From a virus, in IMG/VR virus record IMGVR_UViG_3300026097_000041, positions 1 to 41,981 of that record: 41,981 bases of DNA. One strand, given 5' to 3'. Of the stretch, positions 7,574-41,387 are shown in pieces; the first letter of the stretch is position 1; each line of letters starts with the position of its first letter. The position numbers and the translations under genes are program-made. A model generated the notes under the pieces. That model was given only the letters and a program-made list of their open reading frames with translations. It was not told where the DNA came from and ran no database searches.

Positions 7574-8436
7574 GACAATATTTAGACGCATTAGAATATA
7601 TTTTAGCTAACGGCAAAGACCGCAGCGACAGAACTGGAGTAGGCACACGTGGTGTATTTGGTTATCAAATGCGTTTTGATTTGCGAGACGAGTTTCCTGC
7701 TGTTACTACAAAAAAGCTTGCTTGGAAAAGTGTAGTAAGTGAGCTACTATGGTTCTTAGAAGGTTCTAGTGACGAACGTAGACTAGCTGAGATACATTAC
7801 GGCAAGCCGCGTGAAGAACTAGTAGGCAAGAACACTATTTGGACTGCTAATGCTGACAAACAAGCTAAAGACTTAGGATATGTCAATACGGATACAATAA
7901 AGGATCTAGGACCAGTTTATGGACATCAATGGCGCACTTGGGATGCTGCACTAGGCTTTGTAGATCAAATTGCAGATGTATTAGAAAATTTATATCATGA
8001 TCCAGATAGTCGCAGACATATTGTAAGTGCATGGAACGCTGACAGAGTAAACGTAATGGCGCTGCCGCCGTGTCATACACTATTTCAATTCCATGTACAA
8101 GATGGAGAACTAAGTTGCCAACTCTATCAACGTTCAGCAGATATGTTCTTAGGTGTCCCGTTTAATGTTGCAAGTTATAGTTTGCTTACACACATGTTTG
8201 CTCAGTTGCTTGATCTAAAAGTAGGAGATTTTGTATGGACTGGTGGTGATTGTCACATTTATCAAAATCATATGGAACAAGTTAAAGAACAAATTACTAG
8301 AGAACCACGTAAAGGTCCAATATTGGAAATACCAGCCTTTAAGGACTTAGAAGAATTAGTAAATACTAGACCGAGTGATTACAAATTACTTAATTACAAT
8401 CCTATGGATTCGATTAAGGCTCCTATGGCAGTATGA
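7570..8436 (+). CDS. thyA: Thymidylate synthase (ThyA)
   Basis: A 288-residue enzyme that converts dUMP to dTMP using methylene-tetrahydrofolate. The catalytic Cys168 is in LPPCHTLFQFHV. RSDRTGVGT, GPVYGHQWR, YQRSADMFLGVPFN and CHIYQNH are all standard. I chose the TTG at 7570: the protein then begins MRQYLDALEYIL like other ThyA, a GGAG lies 6 bases upstream, and it overlaps the DHFR stop as TTGA. A GTG at 7558 is the alternative. Confidence 0.93.
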   Translation: MRQYLDALEYILANGKDRSDRTGVGTRGVFGYQMRFDLRDEFPAVTTKKLAWKSVVSELLWFLEGSSDERRLAEIHYGKPREELVGKNTIWTANADKQAKDLGYVNTDTIKDLGPVYGHQWRTWDAALGFVDQIADVLENLYHDPDSRRHIVSAWNADRVNVMALPPCHTLFQFHVQDGELSCQLYQRSADMFLGVPFNVASYSLLTHMFAQLLDLKVGDFVWTGGDCHIYQNHMEQVKEQITREPRKGPILEIPAFKDLEELVNTRPSDYKLLNYNPMDSIKAPMAV

Positions 8437-15745: not shown

Positions 15746-17992
15746 ATGGTAGAACCATCAAAAGAACTACAACTAGTATTTGACAAAGCAATCAATGATG
15801 CAAAAAAATTGCAGCATGAGTATGTAACTGTCGAACATCTGGTGTATGCTATGCTTTGTGAAGAAAACTTCATTAACACAATGGGCGTGTTTGGAGCAGA
15901 CGTAGACTATATTAAAAATAATATTGAACATCATCTAAAAAATAATTGTGATGAAATTACCATTTCTGAAACAAAGTTCAAACCTCGTAAAACACAAACG
16001 GTAGAACGTGTACTTAATCGTGCATTTACACAAGTTCTCTTTGCAGGACGTCAACATATCGACTTGCCTGATGTTTTACTAAGTGTGTTAGGTGAAAAGA
16101 AAAGTATTGCTGTATACTATCTTGAAAAAGGCGGAATAGCAAAGGCCAAGTTTGCTGAATTTGTTAATGAAGAACTTGATGATGATCACATTCACGAAGA
16201 AGAAATTTCGACTGAAGCAAAGAAAGCACTACGTGCATTTACCGTTGATCTAAATGATCAAGTAAAACGAGGCAAAGTTGATCCTATTATTGGACGCTCA
16301 GAAGAATTAGAACGTGTTGCACTTGCTCTAGGACGGCGCTCAAAGAACAACGTGTTGCTAGTAGGTGATCCTGGTGTAGGTAAAACTGCTATTGCAGAAG
16401 GTCTTGCTTTTAATATCGAACAAGGACATGTCCCTGACTTCCTTAAAGAATACAAAGTATACAACTTAGACATCGGTAGTATGCTTGCTGGATCGAAATA
16501 TCGAGGCGACTTTGAAGAACGCTTTAAACTAGTACTACAGGCGCTTACAAAGCAAGGCAAAACAATTATGTTTGTTGATGAAGCACATATGATGAATGGT
16601 GCTGGCGCAGGCGGTAGTGGAAACTCAAACGATCTTGCTAACATGCTCAAGCCTGCACTTACCAAAGGTGATTTGAAAGTTGTTGCATCAACTACTTGGG
16701 AAGAATATCGTAAGTACTTTGAAAAGGATCGTGCTCTTATGCGTCGATTCCAACGTGTAACGGTAAGCGAACCTACACCAGAAGTAACTAAAGATATTTT
16801 ACGTGGTCTTAAAAAGTACTATGAAGATTATCATGGTACGGAAATTACAGAAGATGCTATCGAAGCGGCTGTAAAGCTTAGTGTAAAATATCAATCGGAC
16901 AAGAAACTTCCTGATAAAGCAATTGATTTGATTGATGTAGCATGTGCTCGTTTTAAACTTAAAGATGATCACGAAGGTGATAAGATTGTTGGTGAGGCAC
17001 AAGTTCAATTTGAACTTGCCAAAATGGTTAATATGCCTGCTGAACAAGTTGCTGAAAAAGAAAGCGAGAATTTAGCCAATCTTGAGAAGAATATTAAAAG
17101 TTCAGTATTCGGACAAGACGATGCTATTGAATCAATTGTTGACAAAATTCTCGTGTCGCAAGCAGGTCTTAAACCGGATGATAAGCCTATCGGTGCATTT
17201 GTGTTTATGGGCCCAACAGGTACCGGTAAAACAGAAACAGCTAAAGCACTTGCAAATAATCTAGGCGTAAAATTAGTAAGATTTGACATGTCAGAGTATA
17301 TGGAAAAGCATAGTGTTGCTAAACTAATTGGTTCGCCTCCGGGTTATGTAGGACATGAAGACAATGGCGGACAATTAATTACTAAACTACAAGAAAATCC
17401 AAACTGCGTATTGTTACTTGACGAGATCGAGAAAGCACACCCAGATGTTTCACAAATTTTATTGCAACTTATGGACAATGGTAAAGTAACAGGGTCTAAT
17501 GGTAAGGAAGCAGACGCTCGTAATTGTACACTAATCCTTACAACTAACTTAGGTGCTGCACAGGCAGAAAAAAGTTCAATTGGATTTAGTACAGAAGAAG
17601 ATAATACCTACGAAGATACTGAATTTAAGAAATTCTTTGCTCCAGAGTTCCGCAACAGACTTGATGGTGTAATTACGTTTGCTAAACTTGGTAAAGAAGT
17701 AATGATGAAAATTGTTGGTAAATTCTTGCTCGAGCTTAAAACAATGGTCAAAGACAAAAACATTGCTATCGATATTACTGACGAAGCACTTGACTACTTG
17801 GTAGATAAAGGATTTGATCCTAAAAATGGTGCTCGTCCGCTACAGCGTGTAATTGATAAAGAAATCAAGCGTCCATTAAGTCGTCAAATTTTGTTTGGAA
17901 CTCTTAAAGGCGGAGGTAGCGTAACTATTGATTTCCGAAACGAAGAAATTAAATTAGATGTAGTAACCGATGATCAAACTGAAACAGTTTGA
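15746..17992 (+). CDS. clpA: ClpA-type AAA+ unfoldase
   Basis: A 748-residue, full-length class I Clp/Hsp100 protein. An N-terminal double Clp repeat (about 1-145) is followed by two AAA modules with Walker A at 207-214 (GDPGVGKT) and 489-496 (GPTGTGKT). The long middle domain of ClpB is absent. The loop SIGF with I612-G613-F614 matches the tripeptide that docks ClpA on ClpP, so it can probably partner the host protease. No phage clpP was seen. It could redirect host proteolysis or unfold assembly intermediates. The next gene starts 23 bases before its stop. Confidence 0.92.
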   Translation: MVEPSKELQLVFDKAINDAKKLQHEYVTVEHLVYAMLCEENFINTMGVFGADVDYIKNNIEHHLKNNCDEITISETKFKPRKTQTVERVLNRAFTQVLFAGRQHIDLPDVLLSVLGEKKSIAVYYLEKGGIAKAKFAEFVNEELDDDHIHEEEISTEAKKALRAFTVDLNDQVKRGKVDPIIGRSEELERVALALGRRSKNNVLLVGDPGVGKTAIAEGLAFNIEQGHVPDFLKEYKVYNLDIGSMLAGSKYRGDFEERFKLVLQALTKQGKTIMFVDEAHMMNGAGAGGSGNSNDLANMLKPALTKGDLKVVASTTWEEYRKYFEKDRALMRRFQRVTVSEPTPEVTKDILRGLKKYYEDYHGTEITEDAIEAAVKLSVKYQSDKKLPDKAIDLIDVACARFKLKDDHEGDKIVGEAQVQFELAKMVNMPAEQVAEKESENLANLEKNIKSSVFGQDDAIESIVDKILVSQAGLKPDDKPIGAFVFMGPTGTGKTETAKALANNLGVKLVRFDMSEYMEKHSVAKLIGSPPGYVGHEDNGGQLITKLQENPNCVLLLDEIEKAHPDVSQILLQLMDNGKVTGSNGKEADARNCTLILTTNLGAAQAEKSSIGFSTEEDNTYEDTEFKKFFAPEFRNRLDGVITFAKLGKEVMMKIVGKFLLELKTMVKDKNIAIDITDEALDYLVDKGFDPKNGARPLQRVIDKEIKRPLSRQILFGTLKGGGSVTIDFRNEEIKLDVVTDDQTETV

Positions 17993-19023: not shown

Positions 19024-19590
19024 ATGGAACACTTTGTAAGAATAGTAATGGAAAAACAAGAAGGCGCTCAGTTGTTAGACGAGAGTGTTTTTGCAGAACA
19101 AGAAATTTATGAAACTGAGCAGGGCGGCACGGTATTTCAAATACCTCTATCTCGTCAACTAGACGAATCTGAAGCAGACGAATATGCTCAACGTCTAGCA
19201 AATTATATGTTTGAACAAGGTTATGAAGACTTCGACATTGAAATTTCAACAGACGAGGACGTTGCTGAAGATGAAATTACTTACGAAGACGACGATGAAT
19301 TTTTTGAAGACTACGGTGTTATGTGGTTCAACGAGGATGATGATTTAGACGAAGCAGAGTATCAAGGACGTAAAGTTAAACTAGGCAAGCCTACACGCGG
19401 TGATGTTAAAAAGTTTAAAGTATATGTAAAGAATCCAAAGGGTAATGTAGTTAAAGTTAACTTCGGTGATCCTAATAGTAAGATTAAAAAATCTAATCCA
19501 GCACGTAGACGTTCATTCCGTGCTAGACACAACTGCGACAATCCTGGACCTCGTCATAAGGCAAGATTTTGGAGTTGTAGAAAATGGTGA
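19024..19590 (+). CDS. Probable head-cluster protein, acidic middle and basic Cys tail
   Basis: A 188-residue protein. The first 110 residues are strongly acidic (residues 73-115 are rich in Asp and Glu). The last 75 are basic (KLGKPTRGDVKKFKVYV...) and end in a tail with two cysteines, RRRSFRARHNC to RFWSCRKW. I recall this tail as a recurring module of head-associated proteins in T4-like marine phages. A scaffold or packaged role is inferred from that and from its neighbours. Confidence 0.7.
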   Translation: MEHFVRIVMEKQEGAQLLDESVFAEQEIYETEQGGTVFQIPLSRQLDESEADEYAQRLANYMFEQGYEDFDIEISTDEDVAEDEITYEDDDEFFEDYGVMWFNEDDDLDEAEYQGRKVKLGKPTRGDVKKFKVYVKNPKGNVVKVNFGDPNSKIKKSNPARRRSFRARHNCDNPGPRHKARFWSCRKW

Positions 19591-19907
19591 GATTAGTAGA
19601 ATTTGAAACAAAAGAAATGCCATTTGATGTAGTAGACGATGTTGCTATCTATATGCGCAACGATCCTATGATATACCGCAAGCAATTGTTTCCTGCTATT
19701 ATGCGTATGAAAAGTTCATACGATAAAGGCAAATCTCCAGATCCTGAAAAGTGTTTAGGCGAAGCATGTAATGCTGCAATGGAAAGTTATTGCGAAAAGT
19801 TTCAATTAGGTTCTCCACAAAATGTCTTTAAAAAAGGCGACAGAGAGTCTATAATAGATAAACTATTTGCAGAAGAATTAACACAGATTCGTAACGGAGC
19901 ATATTAA
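19584..19907 (+). CDS. Hypothetical protein
   Basis: A 107-residue helical protein (FETKEMPFDVVDDVAIYMRND...) with three cysteines. It overlaps both neighbours (7 bases upstream, 1 base downstream). No recognised domain. The position in the head-type cluster suggests an assembly role only. Confidence 0.7.
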   Translation: MVRLVEFETKEMPFDVVDDVAIYMRNDPMIYRKQLFPAIMRMKSSYDKGKSPDPEKCLGEACNAAMESYCEKFQLGSPQNVFKKGDRESIIDKLFAEELTQIRNGAY

Positions 19908-20998
19908 TGCGTTTTGGAGAGTTTCGTCAAGTATTAACAGAAGCAGCACAAAAAGGTCGTGAATACAATCACTTAGAAGACCTAGTATTTTTTCACGGTT
20001 CAGAAGGCGCTAATAAAGCGGCAGACGAACTAGAACGTCTAGGAACAGACACTAGCGATGTTGCTATTAAGTGGGATGGATATCCTACTATGTACTGGGG
20101 ACGCGAACCTAACGGACAATTTGTTCTTGTAGGCAAGAACGGATGGGGACGCAACAAGTCAACTAGTGCAAAAGACTTATATAAGTTTATTACAAGTACA
20201 GGCAAAGGCGAGGAATGGCGAGATCGTTTTGGAAAAGAAATGGCTGCTATTTTTAATCTTATGGAAGCAGCAACTCCTTCAGATTTCCGCGGCTATGTCT
20301 ACGGCGATCTACTATATCATCCTGGCAAACCATTTACAAGTTCAGGTGATAGTGTAGAGTTTACTCCAAATCTCGTCACATACACAGTCAAGAAGGAAAG
20401 CCAACTTGGCGGGCGCATAGCAGATTCAAAAGTTGGTGTAGTAGTTCATACAAAATATGACGAGTTTGGTAGTAAATCTGGTACACCTATAAGCGATGTA
20501 GAAGAATTAAATTCTAAAGATGTAGTCGTACTAGGACAAACTTATGTTGCACATCAACCTAAGGTTGATACGGCAGAAGTTAAAGAAATACGTGCATTAA
20601 ATTCAAAAGTTGGTCCTGCTATAGACAAGTTTTTAGCACCTGTTAAAGGTCTAAGCGACATGCACAACATTATATACACATACGTTAATCAAACAAGTCG
20701 AGCAAAACAGCTAGATAATTTAGAAAACGGGTTTTTTGACTGGCTAAGTAATAGTAAAGTAAGTGTAAACAAGCAAGCAAAGATCAAAGCAATGCACGAC
20801 GAAAATCCTCAAGCACTACCTGGAATATTTGCTCTTGTTAAAAAGATTATGACGGTTAAAGACCATATCATTGCACAATTAGATGATGCTGATGCAGATG
20901 TAAAACAATCAACATCGGGCGAAAAAGGCGGAGAAGGGTATGTTGCCCTTGGTAGTAAAACTAAACTAGTACCAAGAAGCAGATGGCAACCTAATTAG
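19907..20998 (+). CDS. Ligase-like covalent nucleotidyltransferase-fold protein, possible packaged protein
   Basis: A 363-residue protein of a family I recall as DUF6267-like in T4-type phages. AIKWDGYPTMYWG places K55-W-D-G58 like motif I (KxDG) of DNA and RNA ligases. GYVYGDLLY (129-137) resembles motif III and VGVVVHTKY (176-184) resembles motif IV. The N-terminus MRFGEFRQVLTEAA matches a T4 capsid-targeting peptide with a predicted gp21-type cut after LTE (residue 12). It may be carried in the head and injected. Ligase activity is not established. Confidence 0.7.
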   Translation: MRFGEFRQVLTEAAQKGREYNHLEDLVFFHGSEGANKAADELERLGTDTSDVAIKWDGYPTMYWGREPNGQFVLVGKNGWGRNKSTSAKDLYKFITSTGKGEEWRDRFGKEMAAIFNLMEAATPSDFRGYVYGDLLYHPGKPFTSSGDSVEFTPNLVTYTVKKESQLGGRIADSKVGVVVHTKYDEFGSKSGTPISDVEELNSKDVVVLGQTYVAHQPKVDTAEVKEIRALNSKVGPAIDKFLAPVKGLSDMHNIIYTYVNQTSRAKQLDNLENGFFDWLSNSKVSVNKQAKIKAMHDENPQALPGIFALVKKIMTVKDHIIAQLDDADADVKQSTSGEKGGEGYVALGSKTKLVPRSRWQPN

Positions 20999-21006
20999 GA
21001 TTAACG

Positions 21007-21825
21007 ATGTTTTTAAGAGAATTATTTGAAGCACCTGGAAAAACAGCAGTATTAGCATTTGGTAGATTAAATCCGCCAACTGTAGGACACGCAAAGCTAG
21101 TAGATAAACTTACTAGCATTAAAGGCGATCATTATCTCTTTTTATCACACACACAAAAGCCTAAAACTGATCCATTGGACTTTGCTACTAAAGCTAAGTT
21201 TGCAAAACAATTCTTTCCAAATGTTACCGTAGGCCATCAAGCAGTTCGTACCCCTGTGCAAGCATTAGAATTTTTACAATCACAAGGTTATACTGACGTT
21301 ATCTTTATTGCTGGTAGTGACAGAGTAGATGGTTTCCAAAAACTATTCGATACATACAACGGTAAAGCCGACAAAACAGGTAAAGTACCATTTAAATTTA
21401 ACTCGATTCGTGTAGTAAGTGCAGGCGAACGTGATCCAGACGCTGATGACGTAAGTGGAATGAGTGCATCAAAGATGCGAGCACTAGCAGCACAAGGCGA
21501 ATTAGAATCGTTTGCACAAGGTGTTCCAGACAAGAAACTAGCACAAACTATGTACGATGCTGTACGCAAAGGTATGGGTGTTAAAGATAATGTCGCAGCA
21601 GAAGATGCTAGTGGTGAAGAAGAAGATGAATTTCACCGTAAGCTAGATAAACTTGTACACAAAACTTTTGGTCACAGCAGTGATGAAAAGAAAAAGAAAA
21701 AAGCAAATGAAAAGGCTCCTCCAGGCAGAGAGAAGCAAGTCAAAGCACTAAAGAAAAAGTTTGATGATCCCAGTGCACCGTATGCTATTGCGTGGGCACA
21801 GCACAACAAGAAGAAAAAGAAGTAA
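21007..21825 (+). CDS. Cytidylyltransferase-fold nucleotidyltransferase with basic tail, possible packaged protein
   Basis: A 272-residue protein. The domain at 13-190 is NadD/PPAT-like: TVGH (25-28) is the nucleotide-binding (H/T)xGH motif and GMSASKMR (151-158) matches ISSTxxR. An acidic linker follows, then a very basic tail with EKQVKALKKKFDDPSAPYAI and a final KKKKK. The N-terminus MFLRELFEAPG resembles a capsid-targeting peptide cut after LFE. The substrate could be NMN, nicotinate mononucleotide or another nucleotide. It may act on pyridine nucleotides after injection; inference. Confidence 0.75.
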   Translation: MFLRELFEAPGKTAVLAFGRLNPPTVGHAKLVDKLTSIKGDHYLFLSHTQKPKTDPLDFATKAKFAKQFFPNVTVGHQAVRTPVQALEFLQSQGYTDVIFIAGSDRVDGFQKLFDTYNGKADKTGKVPFKFNSIRVVSAGERDPDADDVSGMSASKMRALAAQGELESFAQGVPDKKLAQTMYDAVRKGMGVKDNVAAEDASGEEEDEFHRKLDKLVHKTFGHSSDEKKKKKANEKAPPGREKQVKALKKKFDDPSAPYAIAWAQHNKKKKK

Positions 21826-22040
21826 TGGACGAACTTGAGTATATCAAAAAACTAGCAGGTGTAAACGAATTTAAAGGTTACACAGAGTATACTCTTGAAA
21901 ACATGAGTCAGACTGCTGACGCTATAAAGAAAAAAGAAAAAGCAAACAATATCAAGCCCGGTGATCCAGAATGGTTTGAACTATGGTTTAGTAAACCATA
22001 CATGACAGGGCATACTTTTAGAGGGCGTGGGAAAAAATAA
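21825..22040 (+). CDS. Small basic protein of the head-type cluster
   Basis: 71 residues from the ATG at 21825, which overlaps the upstream stop (TAATG). The segment KPGDPEWFELWFSKPYMTG looks like a conserved core, followed by FRGRGKK. The function is unknown. Confidence 0.7.
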   Translation: MDELEYIKKLAGVNEFKGYTEYTLENMSQTADAIKKKEKANNIKPGDPEWFELWFSKPYMTGHTFRGRGKK

Positions 22041-22249
22041 TGTTTAAACGTTTGAGAAGGGCATTAAATCCGTGGTATATCTTAGAAGTTACACATCGTG
22101 GATTAGAAAGACGCATAATTGTAAAAAATTTTAAAAAGAAAACACCTAAACTATTAAGTGGATACGATAGCGACGGTAATTGGTTTGAATTAAAATCTGA
22201 CACACCCATGGACTATTATATAGCAGAATACAAAGACGATCTAAAATGA
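22040..22249 (+). CDS. Small hypothetical protein
   Basis: A 69-residue protein, basic at the N-terminus (MFKRLRRALNPWYILEVTHRG). A predicted small beta-rich fold follows and the end is acidic. It shares overlaps with both neighbours (TAATG and ATGA). No family is recognised. Confidence 0.65.
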   Translation: MFKRLRRALNPWYILEVTHRGLERRIIVKNFKKKTPKLLSGYDSDGNWFELKSDTPMDYYIAEYKDDLK

Positions 22250-23301
22250 GAATTAGAGAAATAACAGAAGCTGTTGGACGTATTACTAAACAGAACCAAA
22301 CCGTTGATGTAGGACCTGACGAAATCAAAACACAGGCTAAAAAGTTTGGTAATAGTGTAGACCGAGATGGGCGCCCGCCTACACTAAGCAAGAAAGTAAA
22401 AGGCAAATCAACTAATGTGTTGTACAACCTAGGACTTGCTGAAGGTTACAAACTACAACTAGAGCGTGACCGAGAACTATTGGTATTAAACATTACTGAT
22501 ACAAAGACAGGCAAGCGTACAGAAGTGCGTGGCAAACCAGGTTACGAAACCAATTACGATCCCAACGATAGTTTGCACATACTATTAGACAAAGTAGGCA
22601 AGAGTGCTAATATTAGTGAACTAATGAACGGCGAAGTTGTAACTATTAATCCTAAACATCCAGATGCTGATCGTGCAAAAGCAGCAACAGACAAGGCTTA
22701 TAGCGAAGCATTTGATACTGATGTAGAATGGATCAAGGGTGCTGCACCACAGGGCGCTAGTGTGTTTGCTGCGAAGGTCGATGACGCTTATATTGAGATA
22801 ACTTACAAGCCAATGAACAAAGGCGTTTATATAAGTTTTACTCGTGGTGCAAGAATGAGTGTAACTGGCGAAGGTGGTCAGAACAAAATATTCGGTGCTG
22901 TTATCAATCATATTAAAAAATGGGTTGATGCTAACAACCCACAAGAAATATACTTTAGTGCATTTAAGCCTCGCACTGGAGCATTTGGATCTCAAGACAA
23001 TACAAGAAGCGGACTATATCGCAAAATGGTACAACGCTTTGCCAGTCAAAACGGTTATAACTACGATGTAGAAGACACTGGCAATGAAGATACTTTTATT
23101 CTTAAAAGACAAGGCGTAGAAGAAAACTTTGCTGATGGTAAGAAAAAAGGCAAAAGCAGACCCGGACGTTTTAAAAAAGCAGGCGTTAGTTGTAAAGGCA
23201 GTGTGACTAGTCTTCGTAAAAAAGCAAAGAACGCTAGCGGCGAAAGACAAAAAGGTTACCACTTTTGCGCCAACATGAAATCAGGCAGAAAGAAAAAATA
23301 A
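22246..23301 (+). CDS. Probable packaged head protein with Cys-bearing basic tail
   Basis: A 351-residue protein. The N-terminus MRIREITEAVG resembles a capsid-targeting peptide cut after ITE. Residues 160-290 form a mixed domain (FAAKVDDAYIEITYKPM; RSGLYRKMVQRFASQNGY) that is faintly acetyltransferase-like; I do not assign it. The last 55 residues are basic with GKSRPGRFKKAGVSCKGS and a second Cys in YHFCANMKSGRKKK, a tail module I recall from other T4-like marine phages. An enzymatic role is not shown. Confidence 0.7.
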   Translation: MRIREITEAVGRITKQNQTVDVGPDEIKTQAKKFGNSVDRDGRPPTLSKKVKGKSTNVLYNLGLAEGYKLQLERDRELLVLNITDTKTGKRTEVRGKPGYETNYDPNDSLHILLDKVGKSANISELMNGEVVTINPKHPDADRAKAATDKAYSEAFDTDVEWIKGAAPQGASVFAAKVDDAYIEITYKPMNKGVYISFTRGARMSVTGEGGQNKIFGAVINHIKKWVDANNPQEIYFSAFKPRTGAFGSQDNTRSGLYRKMVQRFASQNGYNYDVEDTGNEDTFILKRQGVEENFADGKKKGKSRPGRFKKAGVSCKGSVTSLRKKAKNASGERQKGYHFCANMKSGRKKK

Positions 23302-23405
23302 TGGACATTGAGTATTACGTAGAAAAGTATAAAGAACACGAAGCACAAAGACTAAGTACTAACGAACGTAATGCATTTTGGAGACAATACAATGAAAATA
23401 AGTGA
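23301..23405 (+). CDS. Very small hypothetical protein
   Basis: A 34-residue charged protein (MDIEYYVEKYKEHEAQRLS...). Its start overlaps the upstream stop (TAATG) and its end overlaps the next gene. Supported only by the junction pattern and by the absence of another gene in this stretch. Confidence 0.45.
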   Translation: MDIEYYVEKYKEHEAQRLSTNERNAFWRQYNENK

Positions 23406-23565
23406 ACTATGCGAAACAACAGCAGGGGCAGTAGCAGCCGTTGCAACTCCAGTAGGCGGTAATAAAATGCAAAAACGTAATCCAGACGGTACTGCTAAAA
23501 ATGCTCTCGACGGCGACACACTAATGGCTGGCAAAAAATCTAAAGCAAAAAAGAAAAAGGCATAA
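23392..23565 (+). CDS. Small basic prohead-core-like protein
   Basis: 57 residues when begun at the ATG at 23392, which has a GGAG 9 bases upstream. MKISELCETTAG is of the same style as the capsid-targeting N-termini in this cluster. The middle (GGNKMQKRNPDGTAKNALD) and the end (KKSKAKKKKA) are typical of small T4-like prohead core proteins. It probably binds DNA or scaffold. Confidence 0.65.
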   Translation: MKISELCETTAGAVAAVATPVGGNKMQKRNPDGTAKNALDGDTLMAGKKSKAKKKKA

Positions 23566-23568
23566 ATA
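23561..23568 (+). promoter_or_regulatory. Late-box-like CATAAATA
   Basis: CATAAATA matches NATAAATA and spans the stop of the small core-like gene, 29 bases before the ATG at 23598. TATAAT also occurs at 23572, without a good -35. Confidence 0.5.
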
Positions 23569-23597
23569 CACTATAATACGTATTATGGAGTTAATCA

Positions 23598-24110
23598 ATG
23601 TCTAATAAAAAAGTTCAAGAAGGACTAGGCGAACTTGCCGATATGGCAGAACGTGATCATGAAGTACAAATGGCACGTGCCGACCTATATAAAATTGCCA
23701 AGTATGCAATTAAATTGCACGATATGTTAAAGCAGGTTACAGAAGCTGAAGGTATCGAAGGATGGCAACAATCAAAAATTACAAAAGCAGCTGACTATAT
23801 CGGTAGTGTATATCATTCACTAGACTATGATATGAAGTTTGGCGAAGCAGAAGTAACAGAAGCTCGCGATACACATTGTTCAGACAAATGCTGCGGATCA
23901 GATGTGAAAGCAGAAGATTGTACTTGCCCGCCAACTTGTAAGCATTGTAATTGTAACGCAAAAAATGTTGAAGAAGGTAAATCACCTCACAAAAAAGGTA
24001 CTAAAAAGTACAAAAAGCATATGGCAGCAATGCACGCCGAAAGCGCAAAAGACGAGTATAAGTCACATCTGCGTCATAAACTAGCTGAAAAAACCAATAA
24101 ACTAAAATGA
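23598..24110 (+). CDS. Head-cluster protein with cysteine-rich, probable metal-binding segment
   Basis: A 170-residue protein. The helical N-terminal domain (about 1-90, GELADMAERDHEVQMARADL) is followed by a dense cysteine cluster (about residues 94-116, ten Cys in a CxxxCC/CxC pattern with one His). That cluster could bind two metal ions. A basic tail follows with KSPHKKGTKKYKKHMAAMHA, another recurring phage tail module. A ribosome site GGAG precedes the ATG. A scaffold or packaged role is inferred from context. Confidence 0.7.
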   Translation: MSNKKVQEGLGELADMAERDHEVQMARADLYKIAKYAIKLHDMLKQVTEAEGIEGWQQSKITKAADYIGSVYHSLDYDMKFGEAEVTEARDTHCSDKCCGSDVKAEDCTCPPTCKHCNCNAKNVEEGKSPHKKGTKKYKKHMAAMHAESAKDEYKSHLRHKLAEKTNKLK

Positions 24111-24901
24111 AAAAGTTAAGTATAGAACAAGCCGAACCGATTCGCAAAAAGTTTACTCCAGACTGGGAGATTCGCAAGGGTAAATATCTATACAAGAAAG
24201 TAGCGTTTGATGATTATAATCAGGCGCTGCGTTTTTTCATGGTTATCGAAAAACCACAAGTTAAACTAGATCACTTTGCCGACATGGGTTTCTTTTATAA
24301 TGAAGTTACTATGATGGTTTACACACACGATGTAGGCGGACTTACACAACTAGACTTTGAACTTGCTCTATACATTGACGAAGCACTGAAGCAAATGGGT
24401 GCTAGACAACTAGAAGAGGCTATGCCGTATACAGGAAAAAGTCCTTTATACAAAGGTAAACGTATTCCAACAGACGACAAAGCAGATAGTAAAGATATTA
24501 CGAAGAAGTCTAAGAAGGTAGACTTACCTGATGAACCTACTGACTTTGATTTCGGAAATGTAGACAGAGAAAAGCTAAAGAAAGTAGTAGCTAAATTAAT
24601 TCCTACACTAGGTAACGAAAAAAATCAAAAAGTATTACAAGCACGATTTGGCCTACCACCTTTTGAAAAAGCATATACACTTGCTCAAATAGCAAAAGCA
24701 ATGGGGGTAACTCCTGAAGTTATTCGCCAAAGAGAAGCAAAGGCCTTGCGCCAATTAAGACATCCGGATAGAGCAAGAGAACTAAGACCGTTCTTAGATC
24801 ATATAGAAGAAAAATGGTCATCATCGTATAAGAAAAGTATCGATTGTTCAAACCCAAAAGGATTTAGTCAAAAGGCACACTGCGCTGGGAGAAAGAAATA
24901 A
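24107..24901 (+). CDS. Fusion: pterin-carbinolamine-dehydratase-like domain + sigma-70 region 4 + Cys tail
   Basis: A 264-residue protein with three parts. Residues 15-95 match the PCD/DCoH family: DHFADMGFFYNEVTMMVYTH, then GGLTQLDFELALYID. His56 and His74 are kept, but the second His of the usual HH pair is Phe57, so catalysis may be lost. Residues 153-235 match sigma-70 region 4: LQARFGL, TLAQIAKAMGVTPEVIRQRE as the helix-turn-helix, and ALRQLRHPDRARELRPFL. No region 2 is present. The end (SIDCSNPKGFSQKAHCAGRKK, 244-264) is a recurring phage tail module. It may bind the RNA polymerase flap or -35 DNA; inference. Confidence 0.8.
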   Translation: MKKLSIEQAEPIRKKFTPDWEIRKGKYLYKKVAFDDYNQALRFFMVIEKPQVKLDHFADMGFFYNEVTMMVYTHDVGGLTQLDFELALYIDEALKQMGARQLEEAMPYTGKSPLYKGKRIPTDDKADSKDITKKSKKVDLPDEPTDFDFGNVDREKLKKVVAKLIPTLGNEKNQKVLQARFGLPPFEKAYTLAQIAKAMGVTPEVIRQREAKALRQLRHPDRARELRPFLDHIEEKWSSSYKKSIDCSNPKGFSQKAHCAGRKK

Positions 24902-25680
24902 TGGATTTTAACGCACTACAACACAAACTATTTGAATTGGATCCTAGTGATCCAAAAGAAGACTTACGTAAACTAGCAGAAGCAGCAAGTGATAATGCGC
25001 AGAAAAGTGCTGAACCTGCTATAGATTACGTGCAGGAAAGTGCAGAAGTTGCTGAAGGCTCGCTTCAAATAGATCGTGATTATAGTGTTAATGACTTTGC
25101 TGCACTAGCAGGAGTACAAGTTAACGAAGGTGCAGCTGATTCTTTTAAAGCAGGGTTTAAGAACTATAATCAGCTAGATGCTCTCAAAAAAGGTGCAGAC
25201 GCAATGGATGATGGTAGTAGCAGTAGTACTGAAAAAACTCCTACGACATCTAAAACTAGTAAGCCTACTAGTATTGCCGATTTATCTAAAGGTGATAGTT
25301 TTAAAGATAGTACCGGCATGGTTTGGTATTATAACCCAAACGAAAGAAACTGGCGTTCTAAAGACAGAAAGAAAACAATATCAGTGCAACGAGGATTTAA
25401 GTTGTGGCAACAATCACAATCAAATCGTAAACGCAATGTTAAAGAAGATCAAATTGAAGCACTAGAATCAAGAGTTGCTTATTTAGAAAGTGTTATCGAA
25501 ACACTTATAGAAGGCAAACAAAAGACTGGTTCAGCAGGACAAGCAAAAGGTAAAGATCCTATGCCTAGTGCAAAGCCTGGTCGTACTAACCATCCTCTAA
25601 AGGATAAATTAGTAGGCGAAGAATATAAATCTATCAAAGAAGAACTTTGGGCAAAACTCAATGCAGCTAATAAATCTTAA
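24901..25680 (+). CDS. Prohead-core/scaffold-like protein
   Basis: A 259-residue hydrophilic protein. The N-terminus MDFNALQHKLFELDPSDPKE is of a type I associate with T4-like core proteins, with a possible gp21-type site LAE/A near residue 27. A Ser/Thr-rich linker (about 105-125), a small WYYNPNERNWRSKD domain and a leucine-rich coiled coil (EALESRVAYLESVIETLIEG) follow. It overlaps the gene before it by one base. Catalysis is not expected. Confidence 0.6.
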   Translation: MDFNALQHKLFELDPSDPKEDLRKLAEAASDNAQKSAEPAIDYVQESAEVAEGSLQIDRDYSVNDFAALAGVQVNEGAADSFKAGFKNYNQLDALKKGADAMDDGSSSSTEKTPTTSKTSKPTSIADLSKGDSFKDSTGMVWYYNPNERNWRSKDRKKTISVQRGFKLWQQSQSNRKRNVKEDQIEALESRVAYLESVIETLIEGKQKTGSAGQAKGKDPMPSAKPGRTNHPLKDKLVGEEYKSIKEELWAKLNAANKS

Positions 25681-26360: not shown

Positions 26361-26621
26361 ATGAGTGACCGCGTCTACGGGCCAGAAGAAAAGGCAAAAT
26401 TAGAAAGACTTGTAAAAGAAGGCGTAAATGTTATGCAAGAAGTAGAAGATCTAAATGCAGGTCTTAAAGAAACTGTTAAAGCAGTAGCAGAAGAATTAAA
26501 CGTTAAACCCGCACTAATTAACAAAGCAATTAAAATTGCTAAGAATCGTGATTGGGAAAATCACGCAGATGCACACGAAGATCTCGAAACACTCATAGCA
26601 ACTTTAGGTTATGACAAGTGA
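26361..26621 (+). CDS. DsbA-like double-stranded DNA-binding protein
   Basis: An 86-residue helical protein resembling T4 DsbA (a small DNA-binding protein linked to late promoters) in size and general pattern: a charged N-terminal helix, KAVAEELNVKPALINKAIKIA as a helix-turn-helix-like middle, then an acidic C-terminus. A strong promoter and an AGGAG site precede it, so early or middle expression is likely. The match is from memory and modest. Confidence 0.55.
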   Translation: MSDRVYGPEEKAKLERLVKEGVNVMQEVEDLNAGLKETVKAVAEELNVKPALINKAIKIAKNRDWENHADAHEDLETLIATLGYDK

Positions 26622-32993: not shown

Positions 32994-34625
32994 ATGAATA
33001 AAGACCTAACCGCAGCACAAAACGATTACGCACACTTCTTGCCTGCACTAAGTGGGTTTTATGCAACCTATGTGGGCAAGCAGCGTTATCCTGATCCTGT
33101 CAAAGGTCCTTATGTTCCTGACAATCGTATTCCTAGCAACTTCCAAAATAATGTTGAAAGTCTTAACTATCTTAATGCAAAAGAAGGTGCGTTCACTTAC
33201 AAGTGGACGCTCTACTCTGCAGGACACGCTGACTTAGATGTTAACAAGCATGTTCCTAAAGAAGATATGATTAGGAACAGAGATCGTGAAAATACTTGGT
33301 TGCTAGGCGACAGTGGTGGCTTCCAGATTGGTAAGGGTGTTTGGGAAGGTGATTGGAAAGATCCTAATTGCCCTAAGGCACAAAAGAAACGTGACGGTGT
33401 CCTACGTTGGATGGACGCTTACATGGACTATGGAATGATTCTTGATATTCCGGCGTGGGTTGCACGTAGCCCTGCAGGTGCAAAGGCAACAGGTATCAGC
33501 ACATATGACGAAGCTGTTGCTGCAACACGCATCAACAATGACTACTGGATGAAGCATAGAACAGGTGCTTGTAAGTTCCTAAACGTTCTACAGGGTGAGA
33601 ATCACGCAGATGCAGATGACTGGTACGAGCAAATGAAAGACTATTGCGATCCAGTCAAGTATCCAGACAATCACTTTAACGGGTGGTCAATGGGTGGTCA
33701 GAACATGTGTGACGTACACTTATTACTCAAGCGTATTGTAGCACTGCACTACGACGGATTACTACAAAGCGGTGTACACGATGTAATGCACTTCCTTGGC
33801 ACAAGTAAACTAGAGTGGGCTTGCTTGCTAACAGACGTACAACGGGCTGTACGCAAGTACTACAACCCAACGTTTATGGTTACCTTTGATTGTGCAAGTC
33901 CTTTCCTTGCAACAGCAAACGGACAAGTTTATACTTCTAACGAAACACCAGATAGAGGTAAATGGACCTATCGAATGTTGCCTAGTGTAGATGAACTAAA
34001 GTATGCTACTGACACACGAACATTTAAAGATGCTACTACACAAGATGGTATTTTTAAAGTATTTGAAGATAGTCCACTAACTGACGGATTGCTAGTAAGC
34101 GACATTTGTACATACAAAAAAGGTGATCGTAATAAAATTGGTGTGCCTAAAGTAAGTGCAGGCGAAGTTGAACTTGACAAGAACGATCAACCTGTACTAG
34201 ACAAAGACGGCAATCAAATCGTTCGCAAGAAAGACTCAACAAGCTGGGATAGCTTTAGTTATGCTATTCAGATGGGTCATAACGTATGGACGCACATCAA
34301 TGCTGTACAAGAAGCTAATAGACAATATGACGCAGGTGTTATCCCAAAGATGCTTGTACAAGAACAATTTGATAGAGTACTGGTTAGAGATGTAATGGAC
34401 GAAATCTTTAGTAAAACAACTAGAGAAGAGTCTTTAGAAGTCATTGAAAAGTATTCAAAACTATGGATGTCTATACCAGGCACACGAGGTGCTATTGGTA
34501 AAAAGACCGTAAACAGCTCAACATTCTTTGATGCGCTATTTGAAGTAGAACAAACTGAAGAAACAGATGAAGAAGAATTAGACGAGGCTAAATTGGAGGA
34601 ACTCGAGGATGAGCAACTATCCTGA
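32994..34625 (+). CDS. dpdA: DpdA-like DNA guanine/7-deazaguanine transglycosylase
   Basis: A 543-residue protein of the tRNA-guanine-transglycosylase fold. D106-S-G-G-F-Q111 is the substrate-binding DSGGFQ motif. D151 in LDIPAW is the candidate nucleophile. GWSMGGQ supplies the GG loop. Phage DpdA enzymes swap guanine in DNA for 7-deazaguanine bases. FolE, QueE and a QueD-like protein lie in the same block, which supports DNA modification rather than tRNA modification. The C-terminal about 35 residues are very acidic. It overlaps the YdcH-like gene by 17 bases. Confidence 0.85.
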   Translation: MNKDLTAAQNDYAHFLPALSGFYATYVGKQRYPDPVKGPYVPDNRIPSNFQNNVESLNYLNAKEGAFTYKWTLYSAGHADLDVNKHVPKEDMIRNRDRENTWLLGDSGGFQIGKGVWEGDWKDPNCPKAQKKRDGVLRWMDAYMDYGMILDIPAWVARSPAGAKATGISTYDEAVAATRINNDYWMKHRTGACKFLNVLQGENHADADDWYEQMKDYCDPVKYPDNHFNGWSMGGQNMCDVHLLLKRIVALHYDGLLQSGVHDVMHFLGTSKLEWACLLTDVQRAVRKYYNPTFMVTFDCASPFLATANGQVYTSNETPDRGKWTYRMLPSVDELKYATDTRTFKDATTQDGIFKVFEDSPLTDGLLVSDICTYKKGDRNKIGVPKVSAGEVELDKNDQPVLDKDGNQIVRKKDSTSWDSFSYAIQMGHNVWTHINAVQEANRQYDAGVIPKMLVQEQFDRVLVRDVMDEIFSKTTREESLEVIEKYSKLWMSIPGTRGAIGKKTVNSSTFFDALFEVEQTEETDEEELDEAKLEELEDEQLS

Positions 34626-39807: not shown

Positions 39808-40494
39808 ATGAAGAAATACGAAGAAATTATCGAACGCTGCAAAGCCGCAGACAAACGCTATTGGGCAGGCGACAACATTGCTCGCTTGCTACAAAGCGGC
39901 GACAAAGAAAAATTGATTGACGAAGCTACAGAAGCATTTGAAACTGTACTAGACACACTAGTAATTGATAGGCATACAGATCCTAACAGCAAGGGTACAG
40001 CAAGACGTCTTGCTAAGATGTACTTTAATGAGATTATGGCAGGACGCTATGACTATCGTCCAGATGCAACTGCATTTCCTAATGATTCAGAAGATCGCTA
40101 CGAAGGTATGCTTGTGGTGCGTTCAGAGCTAAAGAGCATGTGTAGTCACCATCACCAGCCAGTAAGCGGTGTTGCATACATTGGTATTATTGCCGCAGAC
40201 AAACTTATTGGACTATCTAAGTACACACGTATTGCACAATGGTGTGCAAGACGCGGGACACTGCAAGAAGAACTTGCAAATGATATTGCACGTGAGATTG
40301 CATACTCAACAGGTGCAACTAACTTAGGTGTTTATATTCAGGCGGTGCACGGATGCTGTGAGAATCGTGGCATTATGGCACATAGCAGTCTCACACAGAC
40401 AACCGTGCTAAAGGGTTCATTCAAAGACGATCCTGCTACAAAGAAAGAGTTTTTTGACAACATTAAACTACAGCAGGAGTTTGCACCAAGATGA
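39808..40494 (+). CDS. folE: GTP cyclohydrolase I (FolE)
   Basis: A 228-residue enzyme that turns GTP into dihydroneopterin triphosphate, the first step of both folate and 7-deazaguanine synthesis. Zinc ligands are Cys112 and His115 in MCSHHHQPVSG and Cys183 in HGCCENRG. GLSKYTRIAQWCARRGTLQE is the family signature. It heads the folE-queE-metK unit with its own promoter and dyad. A CGGAG site precedes the ATG. Confidence 0.93.
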   Translation: MKKYEEIIERCKAADKRYWAGDNIARLLQSGDKEKLIDEATEAFETVLDTLVIDRHTDPNSKGTARRLAKMYFNEIMAGRYDYRPDATAFPNDSEDRYEGMLVVRSELKSMCSHHHQPVSGVAYIGIIAADKLIGLSKYTRIAQWCARRGTLQEELANDIAREIAYSTGATNLGVYIQAVHGCCENRGIMAHSSLTQTTVLKGSFKDDPATKKEFFDNIKLQQEFAPR

Positions 40495-41387
40495 AACTAC
40501 GATATTCAGAAGCGTTTTATAGTGTGCAAGGCGAAGGCAAGTTTGTAGGAGTGCCCAGTGTATTCCTACGCACATTCGGTTGTAACTTTCGTTGTATGAA
40601 CTTTGGTGTTGATAAAAGTGTTGGCGATCGTTGGGAGCAACATGCTCGCGGTGAACGCTATAATGCAGAAGTAAAAGCATTGCTAGATGCAGGTGTGCAT
40701 GAAACAACTGAGAAGTTTGAAGATTTACCTATCATTCATACAGGTTGTGATACATATGCTAGTATCTACCCTGAGTTCAAAGACTTTAACAAACTTGCAA
40801 CTATCGACGAAGTAGTTGAACACTTGCTTAGTTTGCTGCCAGAAGGCAAGTGGACTATGGATAACGGACAAGATGTACATCTTATCCTTACAGGTGGCGA
40901 GCCACTGCTTGCTTGGCAACGACTATATGTCGAACTATTTGAACATCCTAAAATGGCGGACCTAAAAAATGTCACAATCGAAACCAACACTACGCAGTCT
41001 TTACACGAAGACTTCCTCAATTATCTCAACAGCACTGGACGAATTCGAGTTACTTTTAGTTGCTCACCGAAGCTATCCGTTTCAGGCGAGTCTTGGGATG
41101 ATGCTATTAAGCCTGATGTCGCTAGTCAGTATGCTAGTATTACTGGTAGTGACATTTACTTCAAGTTTGTTGTTGCTGACAGAGACGATGTTGATGAAGT
41201 TACTCGGGCTGTTCAGCAGTACAGGGATGCCGGGGTGGAATGTCCAGTATATCTTATGCCAATGGGCGGACGCAGTGAAGAATATACCCTCAATGTTCAA
41301 GAAGTCGCAGAACTCTGTATGCAACGAGGATGGCGATTCTCACCAAGACTCCACATATCGCTATTCGGAAATGCCTGGGGGACTTAG
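40491..41387 (+). CDS. queE: QueE-like radical SAM 7-carboxy-7-deazaguanine synthase
   Basis: A 298-residue protein, longer than bacterial QueE (about 210-225). YSVQGEGKFVGVPSVFLRTFGCN is the QueE start. Cluster cysteines are C31 and C35 (GCNFRC). The third, C86 in HTGCDTYAS, is displaced by a 50-residue insertion that splits the usual CX3CX2C. LILTGGEPLL is the SAM-binding GGE motif. The product feeds 7-cyano-deazaguanine synthesis; no QueC was seen in the window. The start overlaps folE (ATGA). Confidence 0.88.
   Translation: MKLRYSEAFYSVQGEGKFVGVPSVFLRTFGCNFRCMNFGVDKSVGDRWEQHARGERYNAEVKALLDAGVHETTEKFEDLPIIHTGCDTYASIYPEFKDFNKLATIDEVVEHLLSLLPEGKWTMDNGQDVHLILTGGEPLLAWQRLYVELFEHPKMADLKNVTIETNTTQSLHEDFLNYLNSTGRIRVTFSCSPKLSVSGESWDDAIKPDVASQYASITGSDIYFKFVVADRDDVDEVTRAVQQYRDAGVECPVYLMPMGGRSEEYTLNVQEVAELCMQRGWRFSPRLHISLFGNAWGT

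What the first reader, a model, noticed from the sequence alone, without database searches (positions are those of the whole stretch)
19907..25680. Candidate packaged and injected protein set marked by capsid-targeting N-termini
Several neighbouring proteins begin with a short peptide followed by a T4 gp21-type cleavage pattern (L/I-x-E then A): LTE/A (19907), LFE/A (21007), ITE/A (22246), and weaker LCE/T (23392) and LAE/A (24901). T4 internal proteins IPI-III and Alt carry such cleaved targeting peptides and are injected with DNA. Here the cargo would include a ligase-like protein and a nucleotidyltransferase, meaning enzymes delivered at the moment of infection.
Basis: partly seen in the sequence, partly recalled or inferred. 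Interest (0 to 1): 0.85.

Follow-up and report, generated by a model that had tools for sequence, protein, structure and literature searches.

The report
Cut-apart cargo proteins for phage heads
A marine giant-phage relative carries a cluster of enzymes that begin with, and are stitched together by, short peptide signals like those phage T4 uses to load proteins into its head and trim them there, which suggests a stock of ready-made enzymes travelling inside the virus particle.

Summary
Comparison makes the case for 19907 (DUF6267, ligase-like), 21007 (cytidyltransferase-like) and 22246, and adds 23598. Orthologues keep hydrophobic-x-E|small while the peptide before it changes in sequence and length. 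Some lack the peptide and start near where it would be cut. In cyanophage S-SM1 the 21007 family was reported in purified virions (PMC3037559, passages), and that copy begins MKKFSAFLNE|A, like T4 internal proteins. 24901 is not supported as a leader; 23392 is plausible.

The larger finding: 22246, 23598, 24107, 24901 and relatives are mosaics of swappable modules. Three modules follow E in 32 of 32 distinct contexts, with a hydrophobic P3 in 28 of 32 (background 2.1%). Relatives reach 1261 aa and include superoxide dismutase, nucleotidase and GNAT-like parts. A 197-kb contig, G044 (polymerase 63% identical to the window's), carries both a matching island and a gp21-type prohead protease. Best reading: head-targeted cargo, partly polyproteins, cut by the prohead protease. 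Packaging, cutting and injection are untested here.

The parts
19907..19942 (+). leader MRFGEFRQVLTE of protein A; predicted cut E12|A13
   Evidence: 37 of 37 IMG/VR loci found with this protein as query keep LxE before the domain while the leader varies; leaderless orthologues start nearby; AlphaFold2: residues 1-20 about pLDDT 33
19943..20998 (+). protein A body: DUF6267, invariant KWDG motif, ligase-like
   Evidence: Pfam 3e-30; K55 W56 D57 G58 invariant in 32 rows; Foldseek best E 0.06, mostly ligases; VIA Z up to 5.8, RNA ligases first
21007..21030 (+). leader MFLRELFE of protein B; predicted cut E8|A9
   Evidence: 80 IMG/VR loci, 40 distinct N-termini; strict motif in 0.82 of 40 distinct N-termini of the family
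21031..21825 (+). protein B body: cytidyltransferase-like nucleotidyltransferase with lysine-rich tail
   Evidence: phrog_3041 8e-55, phrog_395 1.2e-36; matches S-PM2 T4-GC190, the cluster of SSM1_190
22246..22269 (+). leader MRIREITE of protein E; predicted cut E8|A9
   Evidence: orthologue leaders differ but keep the site
22270..22443 (+). protein E module 1 (VGRITKQNQTVDVGPDE...), ends LAE|G
   Evidence: absent in L053 and L050, where a short leader is fused directly to module 2
22444..22707 (+). protein E module 2 (GYKLQLERD...KAYSE)
   Evidence: preceded by hydrophobic-x-E in 7 of 7 distinct contexts
22708..23124 (+). protein E module 3: GNAT-like domain
   Evidence: same domain in 11 other loci; joined after E|A in 9 and E|S in 1 of the 10 where the joint is visible; AlphaFold2 pLDDT 73; Foldseek best E 6e-4, acetyltransferases
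23125..23301 (+). protein E module 4: basic Cys/His tail (NFADG...SRPGR...CANMKSGRKKK)
   Evidence: preceded by E in 18 of 18 distinct contexts, hydrophobic P3 in 14
23392..23415 (+). probable leader MKISELCE of protein F; cut E8|T9 plausible
   Evidence: orthologues MKMKDIVKE|T, MKMNEIVKE|T, MKIKDVLKE|T, MKINEILKE|M; motif fraction only 0.24 without T
   Evidence: orthologues MRDKEISE|G, MRESEIRE|G, MREKDLTE|G, MNKTEIQE|G; 5 sites in G against 0.8 expected, 0 of 2000 shuffles
23862..23975 (+). Cys-rich module of G (CSDKCCGSDVKAEDCTCPPTCKHCNCN) with cut-like sites on both sides
   Evidence: followed by VxE[GSAD] in 10 of 10 distinct contexts, preceded by hydrophobic-x-E in 7 of 9 (lists, counted by eye); module moves between positions
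24107..24901 (+). protein H: pterin-dehydratase-like | sigma-70 region 4 | C-N-P-K-G-F tail; joints LEE|A (24418) and IEE|K (24811); no leader
   Evidence: Pfam Pterin_4a 1.2e-18, Sigma70_r4 9.6e-12; sigma part missing in L001 and L140
24901..25680 (+). protein I: no conserved leader; 6 cut-like sites; tail module after TLIE|G (25512)
   Evidence: 6 sites against 1.5 expected, P 0.004; LAE/A not conserved
19024..19590 (+). protein K: conserved LDE|S near N-terminus; Cys/basic tail; possible member
   Evidence: motif fraction 0.69 of 39; 6 sites against 1.6 expected, P 0.0035; the G044 copy aligns only from window residue 72, with DLDE|AEYQGRK (window) and DLFE|AEYQGRK (G044)

Best explanation
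The block is a cargo island of a marine jumbo T4-superfamily phage. SHOWN BY SEQUENCE: proteins A, B, E and G begin with a short variable peptide ending in hydrophobic-x-E|A/G/D, of the same form as T4's capsid-targeting propeptides. The island's mosaic proteins are built from interchangeable modules (enzymes and short basic or Cys-rich tails), and module boundaries carry the same E| signature. INFERRED: the leader binds the scaffold core, so the precursor is built into the prohead. The gp21-type protease then removes the leader and cuts at the joints, leaving free enzymes and basic pieces among the DNA. On infection at least some enter the cell with the genome, giving ligase-like, nucleotidyltransferase, acetyltransferase-like and, in relatives, superoxide dismutase and nucleotidase activities before any phage gene is expressed. 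The confidence below is for leader-directed packaging and trimming; cutting at the inner joints I put at 0.5.
For: (1) Leaders vary, cut site stays. (2) Leaderless orthologues start near where the cut would be; the leader is outside the predicted fold. (3) Different leaders sit directly on the same inner module (MKINEITMRE|GYKLQ, MKIFEVTKVIVE|GYKLQ, MQVREIITE|GYKLQ) where the window protein has an internal LAE|G. (4) Joints: P1=E in 32 of 32 distinct contexts, P3 hydrophobic in 28 of 32, background 0.021. (5) Codons at P3 and P1' vary at most joints, so the constraint looks protein-level. (6) T4 internal proteins show the same form. (7) The B family was reported in S-SM1 virions (PMC3037559 passages), and that copy has a leader. 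(8) gp21 in 5 of 5 cultured T4-like phages, in 4 of 4 cultured jumbo relatives, in 3 of 12 IMG/VR contigs with B, whose B copies all have leaders, and on G044, which has the matching island and a polymerase 63% identical to the window's. (9) gp23 of this lineage has LxE aligned near T4's maturation site.
Against: No virion of this phage or a close relative has been analysed. Neither the window nor its relatives G013 (126 kb) and G015 (111 kb) contain gp20-23 by Pfam, T4-type or jumbo-type profiles; gp21 in this lineage rests on G044. In the window alone the motif count is not significant. In HTVC008M the island held 4 of 19 CDS with the motif (Fisher P 0.078). Site density is raised in only 4 of 10 relatives' proteins and 3 of 9 block proteins tested, not in A, B or E. 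Not all joints have the T4 P3: YSE|A, YNE|N, HTE|A, QME|N and TTE|N occur. DUF6267 orthologues without a leader are common (14 of 32 rows), and B copies of HTVC008M, S-PM2 and Atu_ph07 have none. Protein H has no leader. No T4-type late promoter signal: TATAAATA 2 times against 4.8 expected.
Confidence: 0.72

Rival explanations
1. The leaders are real capsid-targeting signals, but the internal E| joints are only module starts fixed by descent. The mosaic proteins stay whole in the head.
For: Some joints lack a hydrophobic P3 (4 of 32); site density over whole proteins is not raised in 6 of 10 relatives' proteins; codons of the NFADG joint are fixed at E and the next residue (20 of 20 GAA AAC).
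Against: Leaders and joints are interchangeable on the same module; P1=E in 32 of 32 contexts from three unrelated modules; both flanks of the Cys-rich module carry the pattern.
Confidence: 0.22
2. These are prohead core (scaffold-like) proteins that are cut and mostly expelled, as T4 gp22 and gp67 are, not cargo.
For: T4 gp22 and gp67 also carry several such sites; G, I and K are site-rich.
Against: A, B, E and relatives carry enzyme-like domains; G044 has its own gp22-like gene next to gp21.
Confidence: 0.15
3. The N-termini are not packaging signals; the motif is an ordinary amphipathic start or regulatory peptide of replication enzymes encoded next to the polymerase.
For: The island lies between clpA and the DNA polymerase, not among head genes; the 26361 family shows that such a motif can be conserved for other reasons.
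Against: Nine of 51 near families (one of them 26361) against 0 of 25 others; match to T4 internal-protein leaders; virion detection of the S-SM1 orthologue.
Confidence: 0.1
4. The repeated E| joints are recombination sites at DNA level, with no protease involved.
For: Modules clearly shuffle; L200 against L204 differ by an insert flanked by a repeated EAFDTAVD; GAA is nearly fixed at the joints.
Against: Codons at P3 and P1' differ between most joints; leaders end in the same protein motif.
Confidence: 0.1

Closest known systems
T4 internal proteins IPI, IPII, IPIII and Alt (capsid targeting sequence plus gp21 cleavage)
   Same: short N-terminal peptide ending L/I-x-E or similar before A/G/D; unrelated cargos behind similar leaders; gp21-type protease in the lineage
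   Different: cargo includes ligase-like, nucleotidyltransferase and GNAT-like parts; leaders of B, E, F and G are only 8 residues; cut-like sites also join modules inside proteins; packaging not shown
T4-GC190 cytidylyltransferase of cyanophages (S-SM1)
   Same: same protein family as B; S-SM1 copy has a leader and was reported in purified virions (PMC3037559, passages)
   Different: in the passages seen it is called a structural protein, with no mention of a cleaved leader
phiKZ/SPN3US-type jumbo phage head proteins cut by a gp21-like protease
   Same: protease cuts after E in packaged proteins (PMC9026906 passages)
   Different: phiKZ cuts at S/A-x-E (same passages); a different phage group; no module swapping at cut sites known to me (recall)
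Polyvalent proteins (PMC5512222)
   Same: multi-domain, shuffled, proposed to be packaged and injected, compared there with polyproteins
   Different: there, embedded peptidase domains are proposed to release the parts; none was found here, where joints fit the phage's prohead protease

Membership tests
T4-type capsid-targeted internal proteins | short N-terminal propeptide ending in L/I-x-E (10-19 residues in T4) | tested here: met
   A, B, E and G by orthologue comparison; B, E and G are shorter (8) and G has V at P3; F plausible; I fails
T4-type capsid-targeted internal proteins | gp21-type protease in the same genome | tested here: inconclusive
   not in this 42-kb fragment; present on G044 with a matching island and in 4 of 4 cultured jumbo relatives; G013 and G015 carry no gp20-23 at all
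T4-type capsid-targeted internal proteins | protein present in the virion | not testable with these tools
   only for a relative of B, from PMC3037559 passages
T4-type capsid-targeted internal proteins | leader removed in the mature particle; protein ejected into the host | not testable with these tools
   needs virion and infection experiments
Polyvalent proteins (Iyer et al. 2017) | shuffled multi-domain proteins of mobile elements | tested here: met
Polyvalent proteins (Iyer et al. 2017) | an embedded peptidase that releases the parts (reported for part of that set) | tested here: not met
   no peptidase domain among Pfam hits (E up to 0.01) of 7 block proteins and 17 relatives' proteins scanned
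DUF6267 (PF19782) | profile match above curated cut-off | tested here: met
   106.3 bits against 27
ATP-dependent nucleic acid ligases | motif I KxDG and ligase fold | tested here: inconclusive
   KWDG invariant in 32 of 32; Foldseek E 0.06 at best, VIA Z at most 5.8
GNAT acetyltransferases | GNAT fold | tested here: inconclusive
   module 3 of E: Foldseek E 6e-4, VIA Z 8.8 but RNase E domains score equally

The most novel reading that the evidence does not exclude
Jumbo phages of this lineage make cargo polyproteins: a capsid-targeting leader followed by enzyme and basic or Cys-rich modules joined by prohead-protease sites. The maturing head cuts each one into several separate proteins. Because a module works wherever it lands between two sites, the phages can swap enzymes such as superoxide dismutase, nucleotidase, acetyltransferase and ligase in and out of the particle.
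Probability: 0.5. Interest if true: 0.9.

Novelty: new variant of a known kind. Interest (0 to 1): 0.78.

Why it matters
Capsid targeting with protease trimming is known in detail in T4, but mainly for four internal proteins. If this reading holds, marine phages and their giant relatives use the same grammar on a changing set of enzymes, and the prohead protease works as a polyprotein-processing enzyme. It gives a sequence rule for predicting which of many 'hypothetical' phage proteins travel in the particle, and makes testable the old question of what large phages bring into the cell before transcription starts.

Tried and rejected
Window-only statistics: not decisive. HTVC008M whole-genome scan: 18 of 198 CDS with the motif against 65 of 1368 internal stretches; island 4 of 19, Fisher P 0.078. 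24901 LAE/A: rejected as a leader. gp21 (PF03420) in the window (0 of 1), in 12 contigs with A (0 of 12), in 12 contigs with B (3 of 12; not G013, G014 or G015) and in 5 further lineage contigs (0 of 5). Home-made T4-type profiles (gp17, 18, 20-23) found nothing in G013, G015 or the window; jumbo-type profiles of gp20-23 likewise, while finding all four in the control locus L225. A ClpP-like protein of G013 hit 'head maturation protease' PHROGs; from recalled ClpP sequence I read it as ClpP, not the prohead protease. T4 late promoter octamer: no enrichment. tblastn of protein E in cultured phages: none. Cultured jumbo relatives' B homologues: matches in 4 of 4 at E 9e-23 to 1e-4; only the Atu_ph07 copy was read, and it has no leader. 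S-PM2 is leaderless and, by PMC3037559, was not detected in virions; with leader-bearing, detected S-SM1 this is a contrast of two only. VIA for A lists ligases first and cannot exclude other folds. The jumbo-phage survey PMC7824862 (passages) gives gp21-type peptidase to its groups 1 and 2 and, in the passages seen, no cargo of this kind. Paper searches: no listed title or abstract start described leader-bearing cargo in marine T4-like phages; several listings were capped and full texts were not read; supplements could not be opened.

Counting notes. Counts depend on my own start choice in a simple gene caller. Many loci are near-identical or come from the same contig (L050/L195, L058/L201), so distinct N-termini or contexts are counted. 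One search kept the best 80 of at least 600 gp21 loci, and the best 80 of at least 594. The Cys-rich module counts were made by eye from printed lists. After the report check the Cys-rich counts were corrected to 10 of 10 and 7 of 9, and the first rival's odds were lowered from 0.3 to 0.22 so that they add up with 0.72 and 0.5; one search was run for that check.
Full report
WHAT WAS CLAIMED. Five neighbouring proteins at 19907-25680 were said to begin with T4-like capsid-targeting peptides cut by a gp21-type protease, implying injected enzymes.

THE SEQUENCE. The ORFs and motifs are where stated. Protein A (19907, 363 aa) is DUF6267, Pfam 3e-30; B (21007, 272 aa) is cytidyltransferase-like, phrog_3041 8e-55; E (22246, 351 aa) has weak hits to families of unknown function; H (24107) joins a pterin-dehydratase-like domain to sigma-70 region 4. 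Within the window the motif is not significant by count: 3 of 72 genes against 0.99 expected, P 0.077, though all three lie in the block.

WHAT PHAGE IT IS. The window is a 42-kb virus record. Its DNA polymerase is closest, among cultured phages, to jumbo phages: Sinorhizobium phage Phosso (469 kb, 49% identity), Vibrio phage 2.275.O, Agrobacterium phage Atu_ph07. Phosso keeps the order clp ATPase, polymerase, clamp, folE, queE; Atu_ph07 dnaJ, clp, polymerase. The island lies between the clpA-like gene (15746) and the polymerase (27207).

LEADERS VARY, THE CUT SITE STAYS. In 37 of 37 IMG/VR loci found with protein A as query the leader changes in sequence and length (MRAWQILTE, MRANQFLTE, MRFTEFRTVLTE, MKATEFLTE, MRFSEFRILTE and longer) while LxE stays before the domain. 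Among 80 loci with protein B (the best 80 of at least 594) there are 40 distinct N-termini, many of the form MKTFKSFNE|A, MKKFSKFLTE|G, MKEFKSFISE|A, MLLRELFE|A; a few are truncated, lack an ATG or are mis-started, or have another residue after E (LFE|Q, FFE|Q, LRE|V). For E: MRLREITE|G, MKMRDLLE|D, MRAKDLEE|A, MKWRDIKE|D and others; for G: MRDKEISE|G, MRESEIRE|G, MREKDLTE|G and others. T4 controls read from its genome: ipI MKTFKEFTSTTTPVSTITE|A, ipII and ipIII MKTYQEFIAE|A, alt MELITELFDE|D.

CONTROL. Over 131 loci and 76 families with at least 5 distinct N-termini, the motif fraction averages 0.216 in 51 families within 6 kb of A or B and 0.093 in 25 others; internal stretches give 0.099 and 0.085; 9 of 51 against 0 of 25 reach 0.6 (Mann-Whitney P 0.028; Fisher at 0.5, 11 of 51 against 1 of 25, P 0.043). 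The 26361 family, one of the nine, scores 1.00 without an evident leader, which shows the limit of this test.

LEADERLESS ORTHOLOGUES. In the 32-row alignment of protein A, 14 rows (resembling the Kyanoviridae copies) have no leader and begin within a few residues of KNLHLEHLED, close to where the others would be cut. AlphaFold2 gives about pLDDT 33 for residues 1-20; later ten-residue blocks are mostly between 70 and 96, the last 45. The body is probably ligase-like: KWDG is invariant, and ligases dominate Foldseek (best E only 0.06) and VIA (Z at most 5.8).

VIRION EVIDENCE FROM A RELATIVE. PMC3037559 (passages only) reports 41 proteins in purified S-SM1 virions, among them 'a putative citidylyltransferase (T4-GC190)', and says it was not detected in S-PM2 virions. 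T4-GC190 is the protein B family. The S-SM1 copy begins MKKFSAFLNE|A; in S-PM2 the domain follows a DUF6267-like part with no leader. Two phages studied by different groups are only a hint.

PROTEASE. PF03420 finds gp21 in 5 of 5 cultured T4-like phages, in 4 of 4 cultured jumbo relatives and in 3 of 12 IMG/VR contigs with protein B; in those three B has a leader (MKSFRSFNE|A from a GTG or TTG start in two, MKTLQSFISE|A). It is absent from the window and from G013 and G015, which also lack gp20, gp22 and gp23 by jumbo-type profiles that find all four genes in a control locus, so their head module is not on those contigs. A scan with jumbo gp21 gave 80 loci, the best of at least 600. Of 15 long contigs among them, G044 (197 kb) also carries the island's tail module at 84% identity, and G042 (223 kb) a DUF6267 gene (Pfam 6.6e-38). 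G044 is the nearest lineage member found with head genes: polymerase 63%, clpA 52%, protein B 45%, protein C 40%, protein K 58% identical to the window's over the aligned part. Its order clpA, cytidyltransferase (MLLKELFLRE|D), C, K, tail-module proteins, polymerase resembles the window's, with a superoxide dismutase and an FMN reductase added and protein A not seen. gp21 lies beside gp22-like and gp23 genes. gp23 of G044, G042 and Vibrio 2.275.O has LSE|Q, LAE|S and LME|S in the stretch before the conserved body where T4 has LTE|A (that this is the T4 cut is recalled), so residues other than A/G after E are plausible in this lineage.

MOSAIC PROTEINS. Protein E aligns with relatives as a string of modules that come and go. 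Module YKLQLERD is preceded by LAE|G, LTE|G, LSE|G, MTE|G, INE|A, or directly by a leader (MRE|G in L050, IVE|G in L053). Tail module NFADG...CANMKSGRKK follows E in 18 of 18 distinct contexts, including a bare leader in L056; tail module WS..CNPKGFSQKAHCAGRKK follows E in 7 of 7, including a bare leader in L077; the YKLQLERD module in 7 of 7. Together P1=E is 32 of 32 and P3 in LIVMF 28 of 32; background in the same ORFs 0.066 for E and 0.021 for the pair. A Cys-rich module is followed by VxE[GSAD] in 10 of 10 and preceded by hydrophobic-x-E in 7 of 9 distinct contexts. Protein K repeats the theme: window DLDE|AEYQGRK and G044 DLFE|AEYQGRK, with different stretches before. Codons at P3 and P1' vary at most joints, so selection seems to act on the protein; GAA for E is nearly fixed and cannot be told from codon bias, and the NFADG joint is fixed at GAA AAC.

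LARGE RELATIVES. The E module 3 domain recurs in 11 loci, in proteins of up to 1261 aa. L197 starts MRIQQLTE|QPRRVAAVAFGRMNPPTIGH, a B-type enzyme fused to island modules. L204 (294 aa) and L200 (759 aa) share one leader and differ by an insert of about 465 residues flanked by a repeated EAFDTAVD. Pfam finds Cu/Zn superoxide dismutase (1.5e-45) in the G013 739-residue protein, nucleotidase NT5C (3.4e-9) in L052, and weak GNAT and ParB hits. G044 has a free dismutase behind a leader-like stretch, a cytidyltransferase joined to an NT5C-like part after VAE|N, and an FMN reductase ending in the same tail but with no leader. Module 3 of the window protein is GNAT-like (Foldseek E 6e-4; VIA Z 8.8, tied with RNase E domains). 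Whole-protein site density is raised in 4 of 10 relatives' proteins and 3 of 9 block proteins (G, I, K), and in 0 of 14 window controls at P below 0.05: evidence of mixed strength.

MECHANISM. Most likely the leader docks the precursor on the prohead core, the gp21-type protease removes leaders and cuts joints, and the freed enzymes and basic pieces stay with the DNA and enter the cell. Packaging is reported only for one relative of B, by others; cutting and injection are inferred.

NOVELTY. Leader-directed packaging with gp21 trimming is known (T4; PMC9026906 passages). Polyvalent injected proteins, some with their own peptidases, are known (PMC5512222 passages). Enzyme mosaics whose module joints fit the prohead protease did not turn up in seven paper searches (titles and abstract starts only, several listings capped).

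Noticed in passing
window 32994-34625, 39808-40494, 40491-41387: DpdA/TGT-like, FolE-like and QueE-like genes (names from my reading and from Phosso/Vibrio 2.275.O annotation): possibly part of a 7-deazaguanine DNA-modification pathway.
   Followed up: no
window 24107-24901: Fusion of a pterin-dehydratase-like domain with sigma-70 region 4; the sigma part is optional in relatives (missing in L001 and L140) and is bounded by LEE|A and IEE|K. If packaged, it would be an injected sigma fragment; no leader was seen.
   Followed up: partly
L200 against L204: Two near-identical phages differ by about 465 residues of modules inserted with a repeated EAFDTAVD: module shuffling caught in the act.
   Followed up: partly
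L161 (G013) and L291 (G044): Phage Cu/Zn superoxide dismutase following a Cys-rich stretch (CPRTKAS.C.CESVNK) and VTE|A or LTE|A.
   Followed up: partly
L027, L137, L002: Cys-rich peptide WVCGxCYxxPCxCES inserted inside leaders of two unrelated proteins, with LxE-like sites on both sides.
   Followed up: partly
window 26361-26621: 86-aa family with a conserved hydrophobic-x-E-G near the N-terminus but no evident leader: a natural false positive for motif-only searches.
   Followed up: partly
L164 (G013) 7657-8271: ClpP-like protease in the relative G013, whose window cousin encodes a ClpA-like ATPase (15746-17992).
   Followed up: no
L042 (S-PM2p141/p142): The DUF6267 and cytidyltransferase genes look like one fused gene broken by a frame change in the record.
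   Followed up: no
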